Shown piece by piece: positions 28,033 to 35,918 of a DNA stretch of 64,000 bases. The stretch covers positions 3,116-67,115 of the forward strand of contig NZ_LMNA01000001.1 in assembly GCF_001422445.1 (NCBI RefSeq). Reading direction: 5' to 3'. A program made the position numbers and the translations under genes. Under the pieces are notes generated by a model. That model made no database searches. It was not told where the DNA came from and saw only the letters and a program-made list of their open reading frames with translations. This DNA comes from Pseudorhodoferax sp. Leaf274 (GTDB taxonomy: Bacteria > Pseudomonadota > Gammaproteobacteria > Burkholderiales > Burkholderiaceae_C). Position 1 is the first letter of the stretch. Each line of letters starts with the position of its first letter.

Positions 28033-28944
28033 ATGGCAGTTGCCCGTTCCATAGCGTCTCTGACCTTGAGCTTCGGGCTCGTCAGCATCCCAGTACGCCT
28101 GTACTCCGCCAGCGAGTCGGGGGCGGCCATCAGCTTCAACCTGCTCGACAAGGGCGGTGGTCGGCTCAAGCAGCAATACGTGTCCGAGAAGACCCAGAAG
28201 GTCGTGCCCCGCGCCGAGATGATCAAGGGCTACGAGGTCGAGAAGGACCATTTTGTGCTGTTCAGCACGGACGAGCTGAAGGCTCTTGAAGAAGCCAGCA
28301 GCCATGTCGTCGAGATCGTCTCATTCATCCCTGAGAAGTCGGTTGACCCGCTGTATTACGACAAGGCCTACCTTCTTGCTCCCGACAAGCGGGGCGGTAA
28401 GCCGTACCAGCTTCTCATGGCCGCGATGCGCAAGAGCGGCCGGTGCGCCTTGGCCAAGTGGGCTTGGAAGGCCAAGCAGTACGTTGTCCAGATTCGGCCG
28501 GCGGAAGACGGCCTGGTGCTTCAGCAGTTGCGTTACGCCGACGAGGTGCGCATGCCCAGTGCGCTTGGCATTGAGAAGGCGGATGTCAGCGGCAGCGAGT
28601 TGCAGCTGGCTTTGCAGCTCATCGAACAGATTGCCGAGGAGGGCTACGACCCCAACCAGTTCGAGGACGAAGAGAAGCAGCGTGTGCTGGCTGCCATCGA
28701 CAAGAAGATTGCTGGCAAGCAGATCGTCGCCTCGGCACATCCCGAGGACGCTGTACCGGGCGGCCAGGTGGTGGACCTGATGGCTGCGCTGCAGGCAAGC
28801 CTGGGCAAGCGCGCGCCTGGTAGCAAAGTCCCCTCGGCCGGATCAAAGGTAACCGCGTTGGCGGATGCCAAGGAACGCAAGGCCGTCAAGCGGCCAGCCA
28901 AGGCTGCGGCCCCGGCATCCCCACGGAGCCGGGCACGCAAGTGA
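28033..28944 (+). CDS. ku: Ku-type DNA end-binding protein (copy 1)
   Basis: A 303-aa bacterial Ku, the homodimeric ring that binds double-strand ends and recruits LigD in non-homologous end joining. The core begins ARSIASLTLSFGLVSIPVRLYSA and includes VDPLYYDKAYLLAPDKRGGKPYQLL and RYADEVRMPS. The C-terminal tail (residues about 260-303) is Lys/Ala/Pro-rich (KRPAKAAAPASPRSRARK), as in Ku proteins with an extended DNA-binding tail. Its stop overlaps a GTG start of the MerR/TPR gene (GTGA). It differs from the second Ku at 30338-31261 throughout, so the two are old paralogues. Confidence 0.96.
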   Translation: MAVARSIASLTLSFGLVSIPVRLYSASESGAAISFNLLDKGGGRLKQQYVSEKTQKVVPRAEMIKGYEVEKDHFVLFSTDELKALEEASSHVVEIVSFIPEKSVDPLYYDKAYLLAPDKRGGKPYQLLMAAMRKSGRCALAKWAWKAKQYVVQIRPAEDGLVLQQLRYADEVRMPSALGIEKADVSGSELQLALQLIEQIAEEGYDPNQFEDEEKQRVLAAIDKKIAGKQIVASAHPEDAVPGGQVVDLMAALQASLGKRAPGSKVPSAGSKVTALADAKERKAVKRPAKAAAPASPRSRARK

Positions 28945-29795
28945 CCTCTTCGCCAACGACTGCCGTGTGGTCCATGCGGCGGGTCCAGGACACACTGGGG
29001 CTGTCGAGGCACACCCTGACTGGCCTCATCGCGCACGAGTTCGTGCGGCCTGAGCGTGGCCCACGCAACGAGATGCGCTTCAGCTTCCAGGACCTTGTGC
29101 TGTTGCGCACGGCCTTCGAGCTTCGGCGCGCCCGCGTTCCGCCGCGCACCATCTTGCAGGCATTGACCAATCTGAGGGATGACCTACCCTCTGAGCTGCC
29201 GTTGACTGGTCTGCGCATCACCGCCGCAGGAGCCCACGTGGTGGTGCGCGACGCCGGGTTACCCAGGGATGCCGTCACCGGTCAGCTCTTGATGGACTTC
29301 GAGATGGTCGCCGCCGACGACGGCGGCATGGCGGTCCTGAGCGGGCGTTCGGACGCGCTTGTTGACCCAGGCGCACAGGCCGCCCGAATGCACTTGGAGC
29401 ACGGCGACGCGCTGGAAGCCGAAGACCGCCATGCGGCGATGCAGGCATACCGACAGGCCATCGCGCTGGATGCCTCGCTGTTGCCTGCGTATGTGTCCCT
29501 TGGTGCGATGCTGTGCGAGGACGGTGCATGCGCCGACGCAGCGGCAGTCTTCGAGCAGGCCCTGTCCAACGGGGTTGCAGACGCGTATCTGCACTTCAAC
29601 CACGCCATCGCCCTCGAAGACACGGGCCAGCCCACGGCAGCGATGGAAAGCTACCAAGCGGCCCTACTGCTCGATCCGCAGTTCGCCGATGCCCATTTCA
29701 ACCTCGCAAGGCTCCTTCAGGAGGCTGGGAACGTACAGGGAGCCCTGCGACATTGGAGCGCCTACCGGCGCATCCAGCGCGATCTGGAGCGGTGA
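28941..29795 (+). CDS. MerR-like HTH protein with TPR repeats
   Basis: A 284-aa two-part protein. Residues about 10-75 form a MerR-type winged helix (WSMRRVQDTLGLSRHTLTGL, FSFQDLVLLRTAFELRRARVPPRTI). Residues about 145-280 contain tetratricopeptide repeats (GDALEAEDRHAAMQAYRQAIALD, SLGAMLCEDGACADAAAVFEQAL, HFNHAIALEDTGQPTAAMESYQAAL, AHFNLARLLQEAGNVQGALRHW). It starts at GTG 28941 overlapping the ku stop by 4 bp, so it is translated with Ku. It may be a regulator or scaffold of the repair genes; that role is inference. Confidence 0.8.
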   Translation: MTSSPTTAVWSMRRVQDTLGLSRHTLTGLIAHEFVRPERGPRNEMRFSFQDLVLLRTAFELRRARVPPRTILQALTNLRDDLPSELPLTGLRITAAGAHVVVRDAGLPRDAVTGQLLMDFEMVAADDGGMAVLSGRSDALVDPGAQAARMHLEHGDALEAEDRHAAMQAYRQAIALDASLLPAYVSLGAMLCEDGACADAAAVFEQALSNGVADAYLHFNHAIALEDTGQPTAAMESYQAALLLDPQFADAHFNLARLLQEAGNVQGALRHWSAYRRIQRDLER

Positions 29796-30337: not shown

Positions 30338-31261
30338 TCAAGCGGCCTTCTTCTGCGGTGCAGGCCTCTTGGCGGTGGTCTTCGTGGCCGCGGTCTTCGT
30401 TGCGGCCTTCTTCGCCGGAGCCTTCTTGCCGGCAGCAGTAGTCGCCGGGGCCTTGCCTGCGGGCTTGCGCCCACCCTTCAAGCTGCGCTGAAGCAATGCC
30501 GTGAGGTCGAGCACATTGGCCGCTTCGGGCACTTCTTCCTCTGGCTGGATCACGGTCTCGGTCTTGCCCGCTTTGACCTTCTTGTCGACCAGCTTCATGA
30601 CCTGGTGGCGGAATTCGTCCTTGAAGTCCTCGGGGTCCCAGTCGCCCGACATCTCGGCCACCAGTTGCTTGGCCATCTTCATCTCTGCGGGAGTGATGCT
30701 CTTTCGGCCGGCGGCCGGCAGGTCCAGTGCGTCCAGGGTCTTGACCTCGTCGCCCCAGCGCAGCAGGTTCAGCACCAGCGCGGGGCCAGATGGCACGAGC
30801 GCGGCAAGATGCTGTTTGGTGGCGATCACCACCTTGGCCAGCGCGATCTTGCCGGTGTCCACCAAAGCCTCGCGCAGCAAGGCGTAGACCTTCTCGCTCT
30901 TGTTGATCGGAGCGACGTAATACGGCCGCTCCAGGAAGATGAACGGCATCTGGCCCGCGTCGATGAAGCGCTCGATCTCAATGGTCTGGGTCGTCTTCGG
31001 GAACACCGCCTCGATCTCGTCCGGGCTGATGATGACGTACTTGCCGTCCTCGTACTGGACGCCCTTGACGATGTTCTCCTTGGTGATTTCCTTGCCGGTG
31101 CGCTTGTTGATGCGCTTGTAGCCCACCGGGTCCATCGAGCGCTTGTCCAGCCAGTCGAAGTCCACGCCTTGTTCGGTCGCGGCCGTGTGCAGCCCCACCG
31201 GGATATGGACGAGGCCAAAGGTGATTGCCCCCTTCCAAAGCGTGCGCGATCCTGTTGCCAT
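30338..31261 (-). CDS. ku: Ku-type DNA end-binding protein (copy 2)
   Basis: A 307-aa Ku beginning MATGSRTLWKGAITFGLVHIPVGLHTA, the form most often paired with LigD in proteobacteria. Core motifs include FLERPYYVAPINKSEKVYALLREAL and LLRWGDEVKTLDAL. The C-terminal 45 residues are repeats of Lys/Ala/Thr/Pro (KKAPAKKAATKTAATKTTAK), an H1-like basic tail expected to bind DNA. A GGAG ribosome site lies 6 nt before the ATG at 31261; the frame upstream to 31363 lacks homology. It is transcribed away from ligD. Confidence 0.96.
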   Translation of the reverse strand: MATGSRTLWKGAITFGLVHIPVGLHTAATEQGVDFDWLDKRSMDPVGYKRINKRTGKEITKENIVKGVQYEDGKYVIISPDEIEAVFPKTTQTIEIERFIDAGQMPFIFLERPYYVAPINKSEKVYALLREALVDTGKIALAKVVIATKQHLAALVPSGPALVLNLLRWGDEVKTLDALDLPAAGRKSITPAEMKMAKQLVAEMSGDWDPEDFKDEFRHQVMKLVDKKVKAGKTETVIQPEEEVPEAANVLDLTALLQRSLKGGRKPAGKAPATTAAGKKAPAKKAATKTAATKTTAKRPAPQKKAA

Positions 31262-31404
31262 GCTGAGCTCCGTCGTCACGGGATACCCCGCACTGTGTAG
31301 TCTGCGGCTCCCAGTCCGGGGGCACGTAGGCGGGCGCTGTGGCCCGCCGTGGGATGGCCACACTTTCGTGCAGGCCGCGGCCGTGCAGCGGCTAAGCTAT
31401 CGCC

Positions 31405-32367: not shown

Positions 32368-32469
32368 ATGAAAAAAATGATTCCGATGGCCGTGGCAGTG
32401 TTCCTGTGGAGTAAGTTCAAGGCGCACCAGGCCACCAAGACGGTGGGCACTCGGCACCTCCGCTACTGA
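32368..32469 (+). CDS. 33-aa membrane microprotein coupled to ligD
   Basis: A 33-codon frame starting MKKMIPMAVAVFLWSKFKAH with a strong AGGAAACG ribosome site just before the ATG. Residues 4-14 are hydrophobic and are followed by basic residues, suggesting one short inner-membrane segment. Its TGA at 32467-32469 shares its last base with the ATG of the LigD fusion at 32469 (TGATG), so ribosomes finishing here can restart on ligD. No function is known. Confidence 0.6.
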   Translation: MKKMIPMAVAVFLWSKFKAHQATKTVGTRHLRY

Positions 32470-35400
32470 TGGCGGGTTTTGGCCCGCCCCTGCCCGCTCC
32501 TGGCGTGATGCGTGTCGCAACTTGGAACATCAACAACGTCGTCAAGCGGCTGGACCTGCTGCTCGGCTGGCTCAAGCGCACCCAGCCGTCGGTGGTGGCG
32601 CTGCAGGAGCTCAAGACGCCGACTGCGGCCTTCCCGGCTGAGGCGCTGGCGGCCGCGGGCTACCACAGCCTGGTGGTCGGCCAGCGCGCTTGGAATGGCG
32701 TGGCGCTGCTTGCCCGCGGGCATGAACCGCTGCCCGTGGTGACCTCGCTCCCCGGTGATCCGAAGGACAAGGAGGCGCGGTACGTGGAGGCGGCCATCAA
32801 CGGCGTCCTGTTCGCTGGCCTCTACCTGCCCAACGGAAATCCGCAGCCGGGGCCCAAGTTCGACTACAAGCTGCGCTGGTTCGAGCGCATGCGCCAGCGA
32901 GCGGAAGCGCTGTGGAGCTCGGGCCAGCCCGTCGTACTCATGGGCGACTGGAACGTCGTGCCCACGGACGCCGACATCTACAAGCCCGACACCTGGCGCG
33001 ACAACGCGCTGCTGCAACCAGCGCCGCGCGAGGCTTATGCGGCAATCCTGTCCCAGGGCTGGGCCGACGCGGTCCAGGCAGTCCACCCGGACGAGAAGCT
33101 GTTCACGTTCTGGGACTACCGCCGCAAGCGCTGGGAGCGCAATGCAGGCCTGCGCATCGACCACATCCTGGTCAGCGCATCGCTGCAGGTCGTCGATGCC
33201 GGCGTGGACCGCGAGGAGCGTGGGCGGGAGGGCGCGAGCGACCATGCGCCGGTGTGGGCTGAGCTCCGAGCAGCGCCGCCCAAGCGCGCAAGGCGTACGG
33301 CTGCCAAGACCGTGCAAGCGCCGTTCAGCGAGACGCCCGGCCGCGTGGTCGCAAAGACCAAAGGGCAGGCAGCAGCAAAGCCAGGCGACCAGCCCCTCGC
33401 CCGCTACAACGCCAAGCGCAACTTCACGAAGACCGCCGAACCGGCTGGCGCGGTGCAGCCCGGCACTGCAAATCGGGACCAGGGGCTGCACTTCGTCATC
33501 CAGAAGCACTGGGCATCGCGGCTGCACTATGACGTGCGTCTTGAACTGGACGGCGTGATGGTGTCCTGGGCCGTCCCCAAGGGGCCTTCGTTCGACCCTG
33601 CCCGCAAGCAGATGGCCATCCACGTCGAGGACCACCCCGTCGACTACAACACTTTCGAAGGCGCCATTCCCAAGGGCGAGTACGGCGGTGGCAAGGTCAT
33701 CGTCTGGGACCAGGGCACCTGGGAGCCGGTGGGTGACCCGCGCGAGGGCTTGGCCTCGGGCAAGCTCGTTCTGCACTTCCATGGCCAGAAGCTGGCCGGC
33801 CTGTGGGAGTTCGTTCGCATCTCCAAGCCTGGCGCCAAGAAGCAGGACCAGTGGATCTTCTTCAAGAAGCGTGGCGACGCCTGGGCCCGGCCCAGCACCG
33901 ACTACGACGTCATCGCGGCTCTGCCAGACAGTGTTTTGGCGCAGCCGCTCGGGCTGGTCGAAGAGCGCGAGCCGCACCGGGTTCGCGCTGCACGGCCTGC
34001 TGCCACTGCGGCCGACATGCAGCAGGCTCGCAAAGCCCCGCTACCGGCAAAGCTGGTGCCGCAACTGGCGACACTGGTGTCCTCGGTACCCTCCGGGAAC
34101 TGGGTGGTCGAGTCCAAGTTCGATGGATACCGCCTGCTGGCCCGCATCGACGGGCGTGAGGTCCGGCTCTTCACGCGCAACGGCCACGATTGGACCGACA
34201 AGCTTGCGCCCATCGCACAGGCCCTCGCGGAATTGGGTCTGGACAGCGCTTGGCTGGACGGTGAAATCGTGGTCTTGAACGATGCAGGCCTGCCGGACTT
34301 CAACCGCCTGCAGAACGCCATCGACAACGCGCGAACCCAGGACATCGAGATGTTCGTGTTCGATGTGCCCTACCTGGGCGGCATGGACCTGCGTGAGGTT
34401 CCCCTGGTCAGCCGCCGCGCGGCGCTCAAGCAGTTGTTCGACGCGCGTGAGGAAGGAATCGTCCGGTTCAGCCAGTCGTTCGAAGTACTGCCAGGCCAAC
34501 TCCTCGAAGCGGCCTGTCAGATGGGCATGGAAGGGGTCATGGTCAAGGCCGCGGACGCACCCTATGCCGCGGGACGGTCAGAATCCTGGCTCAAGCTCAA
34601 GTGCCAGCACCACCAGGAGTTCGTGGTGGTCGGCTTCACCGACCGCGCAGGCTCACCCAAGGAGGTGGGCAGCCTGCTGCTCGGCTACCACGAAGGGCCG
34701 GAGCTGCGCTTTGCGGGCTCTGTCGGGACGGGTTGGGGGTCGGCGACCGCGCGCGAGCTGAAGGCGACGCTGACCAAGCTGTTGGTCAAGCAGCCGGCCA
34801 TCGCACTGGAGGATGCCAAGCCGGGGCGGTGGTCGAAGCGCGCTGCCGGCTCGGAGCGCTGGGTGACGCCCACGGTGGTCGTGGAGGTTGCATTTTCCGA
34901 ATGGACACCCGACCGGCGAGTCCGTCACGGCGTCTTCCGTGGCGTGCGCACGGACAAGCCGGCCGCGCTCATCGTGCGCGAGCGCGCGAAGGCCTTGGGT
35001 GGCGGGGTTCCTGCGAAGGCTGCGCCGAAGACCCCTGGCCTCAAGGTCACCAATCCCGAACGCGTCATCGACCCTTCCACCGGTCTGCGCAAGGTCGACC
35101 TGGTGCGGTACTACGAGAGCGTGGCCGAGTGGATGCTTCCGCATTTGAAGGGGCGTCCCACCTCGCTGGTCCGGGGCCCGACCGGCGTGACTGGCGAGCT
35201 GTTTTTTCAGAAGCATGACGACAAGCTGTCCATCCCGCACGTGCGCAAGCTCCCCCCGGACCTGTGGCCAGACCATGCGGAGCTGCTGGAAGTGCCCAGT
35301 GCGCAGGCGCTCGTTGCGTGCGCGCAGATGAATGTCATCGAGTTCCACACCTGGAACTCACTGGCGAAGAACATCAACAAACCGGACCGCATCGTTTTTG

Positions 35401-35918
35401 ACCTGGACCCTGGAGAAGGAACGCCTTGGCAGCACGTGCAGGAGGCCGCTGCCCTTGTCAGGGCGATGCTGCAACAGCTGGAGCTCGAGTGCTGGCTGAA
35501 GACATCAGGCGGCAAGGGGCTGCACGTCGTCGTGCCGCTGGCGCCGCGGCTGGACTACGAGACGGTCAAGGACTTCTCGCAATCGGTCGTACAGCACCTG
35601 GCGCGCACCATCCCGTCGCGCTTCGTGGCCAAGAGCGGCCCCAAGAACCGGGTCGGCAAGCTCTTCGTGGACTACCTGCGCAACGGCCATGGCGCGACCA
35701 CTGCGACGGCGTTCTCGGCGCGTTCGCGACCGGGCTTGGGTGTTTCGATGCCGATTGCCTGGGAGCAACTGGGAGAGTTGAAAAGCGGCGCGCAGTGGAC
35801 CATCGCGACCGCACGTGAGTACCTCAGTTTTCAGCAAGCCGATCCGTGGTCGGGCTACTGGAAGAAGCGGCAGGCTCTGGCCGCCGCCATACGCCTTTTG
35901 GGTCGAGCTGGCGGCTGA
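32469..35918 (+). CDS. ligD: Four-domain LigD: exonuclease III + phosphoesterase + ATP-dependent ligase + polymerase/primase
   Basis: A 1149-aa NHEJ enzyme. Residues 14-270 are an ExoIII/AP-endonuclease fold with its key residues: Asn20 (TWNIN), Glu47 (LQELK), Asp160 and Asn162 (GDWNVVP), Asp258-His259 (SDHAPVW). A basic Ala/Lys linker (270-339) leads to the 3'-phosphoesterase domain (340 to about 480, FVIQKHWASRLHYDVRLELDG). The ligase follows with catalytic Lys550 (ESKFDGYR), then the OB part. The polymerase domain begins near 858 and has Asp978/Asp980 (FDLDPGEG). PE-LIG-POL is the usual proteobacterial LigD; the leading ExoIII domain is extra. The start at 32469 overlaps the microprotein stop; an in-frame ATG at 32508 is the alternative and would leave the ExoIII domain whole. 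Confidence 0.95.
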   Translation: MAGFGPPLPAPGVMRVATWNINNVVKRLDLLLGWLKRTQPSVVALQELKTPTAAFPAEALAAAGYHSLVVGQRAWNGVALLARGHEPLPVVTSLPGDPKDKEARYVEAAINGVLFAGLYLPNGNPQPGPKFDYKLRWFERMRQRAEALWSSGQPVVLMGDWNVVPTDADIYKPDTWRDNALLQPAPREAYAAILSQGWADAVQAVHPDEKLFTFWDYRRKRWERNAGLRIDHILVSASLQVVDAGVDREERGREGASDHAPVWAELRAAPPKRARRTAAKTVQAPFSETPGRVVAKTKGQAAAKPGDQPLARYNAKRNFTKTAEPAGAVQPGTANRDQGLHFVIQKHWASRLHYDVRLELDGVMVSWAVPKGPSFDPARKQMAIHVEDHPVDYNTFEGAIPKGEYGGGKVIVWDQGTWEPVGDPREGLASGKLVLHFHGQKLAGLWEFVRISKPGAKKQDQWIFFKKRGDAWARPSTDYDVIAALPDSVLAQPLGLVEEREPHRVRAARPAATAADMQQARKAPLPAKLVPQLATLVSSVPSGNWVVESKFDGYRLLARIDGREVRLFTRNGHDWTDKLAPIAQALAELGLDSAWLDGEIVVLNDAGLPDFNRLQNAIDNARTQDIEMFVFDVPYLGGMDLREVPLVSRRAALKQLFDAREEGIVRFSQSFEVLPGQLLEAACQMGMEGVMVKAADAPYAAGRSESWLKLKCQHHQEFVVVGFTDRAGSPKEVGSLLLGYHEGPELRFAGSVGTGWGSATARELKATLTKLLVKQPAIALEDAKPGRWSKRAAGSERWVTPTVVVEVAFSEWTPDRRVRHGVFRGVRTDKPAALIVRERAKALGGGVPAKAAPKTPGLKVTNPERVIDPSTGLRKVDLVRYYESVAEWMLPHLKGRPTSLVRGPTGVTGELFFQKHDDKLSIPHVRKLPPDLWPDHAELLEVPSAQALVACAQMNVIEFHTWNSLAKNINKPDRIVFDLDPGEGTPWQHVQEAAALVRAMLQQLELECWLKTSGGKGLHVVVPLAPRLDYETVKDFSQSVVQHLARTIPSRFVAKSGPKNRVGKLFVDYLRNGHGATTATAFSARSRPGLGVSMPIAWEQLGELKSGAQWTIATAREYLSFQQADPWSGYWKKRQALAAAIRLLGRAGG

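What the first reader, a model, noticed from the sequence alone, without database searches (positions are those of the whole stretch)
32469..35918. LigD with a complete exonuclease III domain fused to its N terminus
The single open frame joins a full ExoIII/AP-endonuclease domain (residues about 14-270, with Asn20, Glu47, Asp160/Asn162 and Asp258/His259 all present) to a standard PE-LIG-POL LigD. Seen directly: one frame, no stop, a basic linker at 270-339. Known: LigD is normally PE-LIG-POL and needs separate nucleases to clean ends and AP sites. Inference: the fusion would give one polypeptide that removes 3' blocks or abasic ends, fills and seals, a one-protein end-joining machine for Ku-bound breaks.
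Basis: partly seen in the sequence, partly recalled or inferred. Interest (0 to 1): 0.88.

Follow-up and report, generated by a model that had tools for sequence, protein, structure and literature searches.

The report
ExoIII nuclease fused to LigD
A soil bacterium and its relatives make one protein that joins a DNA-end-trimming nuclease to the enzyme that fills and seals broken chromosomes; the same joining arose again in another bacterial order, and close relatives of the nuclease part were found in genomes that carry this repair pathway, so it looks like an overlooked partner of bacterial break repair.

Summary
Window 32469-35918 (+) is one intact frame of 1149 aa: exonuclease III domain, short basic linker, complete PE-LIG-POL LigD. 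It is not a sequencing artefact: all 6 genomes of the genus that were searched carry an intact fused gene, and it recurs in records named Variovorax and Acidovorax. A second fused lineage (6 of 199 genomes of one genus, another order) arose separately. One genome has EXO-LIG-POL without PE.

The Exo domain is under purifying selection with its catalytic residues intact. Its closest solved relative is Neisseria NExo, a 3'-phosphatase lacking AP-endonuclease activity; NExo's phosphatase Asn is kept, but its AP-blocking His167 is Leu. That Leu is also usual in Exo genes of Ku-less genomes, so it marks no NHEJ group and AP activity stays open.

In 398 genomes of the phylum, close matches to the Exo domain (E<=1e-88) occur in 49, all with Ku; 40 of the other 349 have Ku. 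Looser matches lose the link (69 of 127 at 1e-62).

Best reading: LigD with a built-in 3'-end nuclease. No description was found in the open library searched; one supplementary table could not be read. Verdict: a real, recurrent new variant of LigD. No activity was tested.

The parts
32469..35918 (+). exo-ligD fusion gene, 1149 aa (start possibly 32508)
   Evidence: single frame; Pfam and NCBIfam; same frame in relatives
32508..33266 (+). exonuclease III (EEP fold) domain, residues 14-266, catalytic residues present
   Evidence: TIGR00195 and TIGR00633; residue table; model pLDDT 88, best PDB match NExo 6fk4, TM 0.93
33273..33395 (+). basic, fast-evolving linker, residues 269-309 (9 Lys/Arg, 2 Asp/Glu)
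   Evidence: no shared internal start
33396..33872 (+). LigD 3'-phosphoesterase (PE) domain, residues 310-468
   Evidence: TIGR02777, PF13298
34053..34982 (+). ATP-dependent DNA ligase (LIG) domain, residues 529-838
   Evidence: TIGR02779 and PF01068/PF04679; match to 1vs0
35043..35858 (+). primase-polymerase (POL) domain, residues 859-1130
   Evidence: TIGR02778, TIGR02776 and PF21686; match to 2fao
28033..28944 (+). Ku homologue 1 (303 aa)
   Evidence: TIGR02772 E 3.8e-79
30338..31363 (-). Ku homologue 2 (341 aa from the GTG listed; the true start may lie further in), 32% identical to Ku 1
   Evidence: TIGR02772 E 2e-86

Best explanation
The gene encodes a LigD of the bacterial NHEJ pathway that carries its own 3'-end-processing nuclease. 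SHOWN by sequence: one polypeptide EXO-PE-LIG-POL; intact catalytic sites; a variable basic linker; two Ku genes within 5 kb; recurrence of the fusion; close association of this branch of ExoIII with Ku. INFERRED: Ku holds the broken ends and brings in LigD. The tethered Exo domain removes 3'-phosphates and other 3' blocks and trims a few 3' nucleotides. The PE domain finishes the 3' end, POL fills, LIG seals. Tethering raises the local nuclease concentration at Ku-held ends. Native AP-site incision is possible but not the preferred prediction.
For: Intact frame and domains. Fused in 6 of 6 genomes of the genus and in other records of the family. A separate fused lineage in 6 of 199 genomes of a genus of another order, apart in the Exo tree (28 fused rows need at least 3 label changes; AU p 7e-116 against one clade) and in the LIG-POL tree (at least 4 label changes forced). 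Exo dN/dS 0.06-0.20, like PE/LIG/POL; linker 0.24-0.66. Catalytic residues intact in 27 of 29 distinct Exo domains from fused frames. xth genes beside ligD/ku in Variovorax, Mycetohabitans, Agrobacterium, Ensifer, Sphingobium. Exo match E<=1e-88 in 49 of 398 genomes, Ku in all 49; Ku in 40 of the other 349. With 20 weaker matches added, the fused, ligD-adjacent and close standalone genes stay together as one branch (SH-aLRT 99, quick tree). NExo is the best sequence and fold match and its phosphatase Asn is kept.
Against: No activity, expression or Ku contact was tested. Leu181 and Phe214 differ from NExo (His, Trp); in NExo H167G lowered the phosphatase rate, so NExo's specificity may not transfer. 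The Leu/Phe(Tyr) pair is shared by 19 of 20 weaker xth matches, 14 of the 20 from genomes without Ku, so it is no NHEJ mark. PE already cleans 3' ends, so the gain is not obvious. Standalone xth genes lie inside the main fused clade (L003, L138-L140). No Ku was seen in the fetched flanks of 10 of 23 fused loci. Of 46 genomes with unfused close members only, 9 have them within 3 kb of ku or ligD by the listed coordinates, 8 of these in one genus. The 49/49 is not corrected for relatedness and its threshold was set after seeing the data: 60 of 64 at 1e-78, 63 of 81 at 1e-70, 69 of 127 at 1e-62. 20 Ku genomes have no Exo match at 1e-62, so NHEJ does not need this branch.
Confidence: 0.54

Rival explanations
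1. The Exo domain is an AP endonuclease: the fusion incises abasic sites near breaks (or in base excision repair) and LigD then fills and seals.
For: The family is class II AP endonuclease; phmmer also matches Archaeoglobus Exo and E. coli ExoIII. The Archaeoglobus enzyme, called an AP endonuclease in its PDB title, has Phe at the Trp212 column and Cys at the His167 column. General xth genes of the phylum carry the same Leu, and some of these may be ordinary AP endonucleases (inference). LigC works with ExoIII/XthA in mycobacterial base excision repair (PMC5663958 passages).
Against: NExo, the nearest solved relative, lacks the activity. The AP-blocking position holds Leu, not Gly or Ser, in the 29 fused-frame and 15 ligD- or ku-adjacent domains of the table (one of the 15, L052, being a broken fused copy). 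Association with Ku points to breaks rather than base excision.
Confidence: 0.26
2. The Exo domain is mainly a 3'-5' resection nuclease: it chews back ends to expose complementary overhangs, making end joining more deletion-prone.
For: NExo has clear 3'-5' exonuclease activity besides phosphatase; POL and LIG could act on resected ends.
Against: NExo removes the 3'-phosphate faster (1.9/s) than it trims nucleotides (0.31/s); no direct evidence either way for the fusion.
Confidence: 0.12
3. The fusion only secures co-expression of two neighbouring genes; the nuclease works independently of LigD.
For: Mycetohabitans B5 shows overlapping xth-ligD genes; fused clades also contain standalone xth genes.
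Against: It does not explain two independent fusions with the same order, the joining of the Exo domain to another LigD with loss of PE, or the association with Ku in genomes where the genes are far apart.
Confidence: 0.07
4. Artefact: a frameshift or sequencing error joins two genes.
For: Mycetohabitans B12 and HKI 454 show a joined frame with a damaged Exo domain, so such decay does occur.
Against: At least 18 main-lineage sequences (window included) and 6 second-lineage sequences share the joined frame with intact catalytic sites, under purifying selection in the 9 pairs tested.
Confidence: 0.01

Closest known systems
LigD of Pseudomonas aeruginosa type (PE-LIG-POL, NHEJ with Ku)
   Same: Same three domains in the same order, above NCBIfam cut-offs; Ku genes nearby.
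   Different: About 300 extra N-terminal residues forming a complete exonuclease III domain plus linker.
NExo of Neisseria meningitidis (3'-phosphatase of the ExoIII/APE1 family)
   Same: Best sequence and fold match; shared catalytic residues and Asn108 equivalent.
   Different: Leu instead of His167, Phe at the ExoIII Trp212 column where NExo has Trp; separate clade from NExo and from the genus' own NExo-type xth; fused to LigD.
RMMBL metallonuclease-LigB fusions (Opitutus, Antarctic metagenomes; PMC10140301, passages seen)
   Same: A nuclease joined to the N terminus of an ATP-dependent DNA ligase.
   Different: Different nuclease fold and a different ligase, without PE or POL.
PolX next to ligD in Alphaproteobacteria (PMC9226535, passages seen)
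   Same: Another exonuclease-bearing protein associated with LigD.
   Different: Different protein family; a separate gene, not a fusion.

Membership tests
LigD (bacterial NHEJ ligase) | PE, LIG and POL domains in one protein | tested here: met
   TIGR02776, TIGR02777, TIGR02778, TIGR02779 above cut-off
LigD (bacterial NHEJ ligase) | works with Ku | tested here: inconclusive
   two Ku genes within 5 kb in the window, three in the genome; no interaction test possible
Exonuclease III / Xth family | family profile over its full length | tested here: met
   TIGR00195 215.1 bits (cut-off 182.55) and TIGR00633 214.8 bits (cut-off 99.05), residues 14-266
Exonuclease III / Xth family | catalytic residues N7, E34, Y109, D151, N153, D229, D258, H259 (ExoIII numbering; the list is partly recalled) | tested here: met
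   N20, E47, Y119, D160, N162, D231, D258, H259
NExo-type 3'-phosphatase | Asn108 that supports 3'-phosphatase activity | tested here: met
   N122; role from PMC6294502 passages
NExo-type 3'-phosphatase | His167 that excludes AP sites | tested here: not met
   Leu181; so not filed as NExo
NExo-type 3'-phosphatase | groups with NExo in a tree | tested here: not met
   NExo and 6 NExo-type xth stand apart from the other 61 family rows (support 100); same
AP endonuclease (ExoIII, NApe, APE1) | small residue (Gly/Ser) at the NExo-167 position | tested here: not met
   Leu181; the criterion itself is weak, since the Archaeoglobus enzyme has Cys in that column
AP endonuclease (ExoIII, NApe, APE1) | cuts AP sites in duplex DNA | not testable with these tools
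   needs purified protein

The most novel reading that the evidence does not exclude
Proteobacterial NHEJ has an overlooked third component: one branch of exonuclease III that is kept where Ku is kept, is encoded beside ku/ligD in several lineages, and has fused to LigD at least twice, once standing where the PE domain would be. It would supply 3'-end processing that Ku and LigD alone do not provide.
Probability: 0.45. Interest if true: 0.78.

Novelty: new variant of a known kind. Interest (0 to 1): 0.62.

Why it matters
Bacterial NHEJ is usually described as a two-protein system (Ku and LigD). A fusion, an independent second fusion and a tight co-occurrence of the close Exo relatives with Ku point to a dedicated 3'-end nuclease. 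This makes the question of how bacteria clean dirty break ends directly testable: the steps sit on one polypeptide, with a natural PE-less variant as a comparison.

Tried and rejected
Sequencing or frame error: rejected. Internal translation start in the linker: 5 of 15 fused genes have no candidate and no position is shared by all. 'Fused Exo is simply NExo': rejected by residues and trees. 'Mycetohabitans is a third functional fusion': rejected, because the Exo part of the joined frames has changes at D151, D229 and D258 and a frame change near its end. Viral copies: 4 pattern matches, none a relative. Full-length AlphaFold model: mean pLDDT 54, not used; the Exo-only model (pLDDT 88) was used. 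Papers on the architecture: nothing in the listings (open-licence library only; long lists were cut, e.g. 20 of 43 shown and 15 of 56) and nothing in the passages of the papers I opened. Sharda et al. 2020 (PMC7719229, passages) mention 20 additional domains in Ku and LigD proteins in a supplementary table that could not be read. A recalled paper on S. meliloti NHEJ was not held.

Rows dropped: L046, L173 and L175 (broken or partial xth) and duplicate records from the residue table; L144 and L176 from the tree; those plus L148 (same gene as L197), AfExo and ExoIII from the trees; loci without a LIG and a POL piece each longer than 150 residues (for example L133).
Full report
WHAT IS THERE. Window 32469-35918 (+) is a single frame of 1149 aa. 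Profile scans place an exonuclease III domain at 14-266, LigD PE at 310-468, NHEJ ligase at about 529-838 and LigD polymerase at 859-1130, all above curated cut-offs. The linker proper is about 269-309, with 9 basic and 2 acidic residues; the next 30 residues belong to LigD itself, with positions invariant also in the five unfused LigDs of the alignment. ATG 32508 may be the true start. Two Ku genes lie at 28033-28944 (+) and 30338-31363 (-) and are 32% identical. The genome also has an unfused LigD with a third Ku on contig 30, a standalone xth 87% identical to the fused domain (L003), and an NExo-type xth at 38%.

IT IS REAL AND SPREAD. All 6 genomes searched in the genus (own included) hold at least one intact fused gene, 10 full-length places in all. 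A scan of genome contigs added records named Variovorax and Acidovorax (the best 80 of 229 relatives were kept); a domain search of the loci shows EXO-PE-LIG-POL in one frame in at least 18 distinct main-lineage sequences, window included (duplicates removed by hand). In 399 genomes of the family, where only 2 candidates per genome were scored so counts are lower bounds, 9 have the full fusion in one frame, 2 a broken or partial one (G061, G150), and G193 an EXO-LIG-POL protein of 945 aa without PE. A plasmid copy (pVarWS11_2, L052) is broken into several frames. In 398 genomes of the phylum one further full fusion appeared, in another order (G629); in its genus 6 of 199 genomes, G629 included, carry it at 80-100% identity (3 candidates scored per genome, so a lower bound).

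SELECTION. Across 9 pairs of fused genes dN/dS is 0.06-0.20 for the Exo domain, in the range of PE (0.06-0.22), LIG (0.06-0.24) and POL (0.04-0.22); the linker is 0.24-0.66. Catalytic residues are intact in 27 of 29 distinct Exo domains from fused frames (22 of 24 rows, plus 6 of 6, one of them the same gene as L148). The two exceptions are Mycetohabitans rhizoxinica HKI 454 and B12. There the related strains B5 and B49 have separate xth and ligD genes, overlapping by 20 bases in B5 and 1 base apart in B49 (whose own xth has one of the three changes), while the long frames carry a degraded Exo end; I read that as decay, not as a working fusion.

ORIGIN. In the careful Exo tree (73 rows) the clade that holds the main fused lineage has support 100/100 and the second fused lineage 99/97, with an unfused xth of its own family as sister (100/94). 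Holding all 28 fused rows together is rejected (AU p 7e-116); part of that comes from standalone genes nested in the main clade, so the number is not a clean test of two origins. In the LIG-POL tree (137 rows, quick method) starred branches force at least 4 gains or losses of the fused label. The G629 protein sits among unfused LigDs of its own family and of Mycetohabitans, and the PE-less G193 protein pairs with an unfused LigD (97). The main fused LigDs themselves are mixed with a few unfused ones (for example L047), which may be losses. So the domain joined LigD at least twice, and G193 is probably a third event. Unfused xth genes lie beside ligD or ku in Variovorax (same strand upstream, downstream, and opposite strand), Mycetohabitans, Agrobacterium rubi, Ensifer canadensis and Sphingobium.

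LINK TO KU. In one draw of 398 genomes of the phylum, a match at E<=1e-88 to the Exo domain occurs in 49 genomes and Ku in all 49; Ku occurs in 40 of the other 349 (Fisher p 2e-38, descriptive only). The threshold was set after seeing the list and relatedness is not corrected. With looser cut-offs the link fades: 60 of 64 at 1e-78, 63 of 81 at 1e-70, 69 of 127 at 1e-62; 20 Ku genomes have no match at 1e-62. The Ku-less exceptions down to 2e-78 (G608, G641, G692, G720, G783) all belong to one family. To see what the weaker matches are, I fetched 20 of them, 14 from Ku-less genomes. In the tree (93 rows, quick method) the fused, ligD-adjacent and close standalone genes form one branch (SH-aLRT 99); 19 of the 20 weaker ones, with L192 and L195, fall outside it but still apart from NExo, and one (G540) sits with NExo. 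The Leu/Phe(Tyr) pair is shared by those 19, so it is a trait of a wider group and not an NHEJ mark, as I had first thought. Physical linkage is weaker than co-occurrence: by the coordinates listed (place lists capped, most compared by eye), 9 of 46 genomes with unfused close members only have them within 3 kb of ku or ligD, 8 of them in one genus (distances of the nine). In 13 of 23 distinct fused loci, window included, a Ku gene lies within the fetched flank (the shortest flank was 1.7 kb).

HOW IT LIKELY WORKS. The best sequence and fold match is Neisseria NExo (E 9e-53, TM 0.93, Exo-only model pLDDT 88). NExo removes 3'-phosphates and trims 3' ends but does not cut native AP sites; His167 blocks them and Asn108 supports phosphatase activity (PMC6294502, abstract and passages). 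The fusion has the Asn (N122) but Leu181 and Phe214. I predict 3'-phosphatase/3'-block removal and limited 3'-5' trimming at Ku-held ends, handing the end to PE, POL and LIG in the same chain. Because the same Leu is usual among general xth genes of the phylum, AP-site incision remains a serious rival. The PE-less EXO-LIG-POL protein suggests that Exo can take over end cleaning, but it is one case, and that genome also has an ordinary LigD beside a Ku. None of this is shown biochemically, and the full-length model was too poor (pLDDT 54) to say anything on domain contacts.

WHAT IS KNOWN. Nine searches of the open library listed no paper whose title or abstract start describes ExoIII joined to LigD (long lists were cut), and the passages I saw in seven opened papers do not mention it (in PMC8656161 the terms searched for did not occur). 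Sharda et al. 2020 note 20 additional domains in Ku and LigD proteins in a supplementary table that I could not read, so a bare listing may exist. The record of Mycetohabitans B12 annotates its joined frame simply as DNA ligase D. Subscription journals and preprints were not searched. Filed as a new variant of a known kind.

Noticed in passing
L132:6015-8852 (G193:C1): EXO-LIG-POL protein of 945 aa with no PE domain; its LigD part groups with an unfused LigD while its Exo belongs to the main fused clade.
   Followed up: partly
L144:6001-9531, L176:2842-6345, L145:6001-9511, L174:2992-6532 (Mycetohabitans megaplasmids): xth and ligD overlap or abut in two strains; two other strains have one long frame whose Exo part has lost catalytic residues.
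   Followed up: partly
L052:5989-9318 (Variovorax sp. WS11 plasmid pVarWS11_2): a plasmid-borne fused copy split over several frames.
   Followed up: no
L146:4842-10424 and L147:4860-10367: ligD, two ku genes and xth clustered on rhizobial plasmids; in 8 genomes of one genus (f51 g248) xth lies 2.0-2.5 kb from ku/ligD.
   Followed up: partly
window 28941-29795 (+): gene with a TPR tail overlapping the 3' end of Ku 1 by 4 bases; its N-terminal part looks MerR-like by eye (not scored), possibly co-transcribed with ku.
   Followed up: no
L003:1522-2328 (G000:C1:141262-142068): standalone xth 87% identical to the fused Exo domain in the same genome, about 102 kb from the fusion and with no ku or ligD found within the stretch fetched around it.
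   Followed up: partly
L062:9978-11174: a lone ligase-like ORF (29% identity to the LIG domain) between ligD and xth in Variovorax boronicumulans PgBe293.
   Followed up: no
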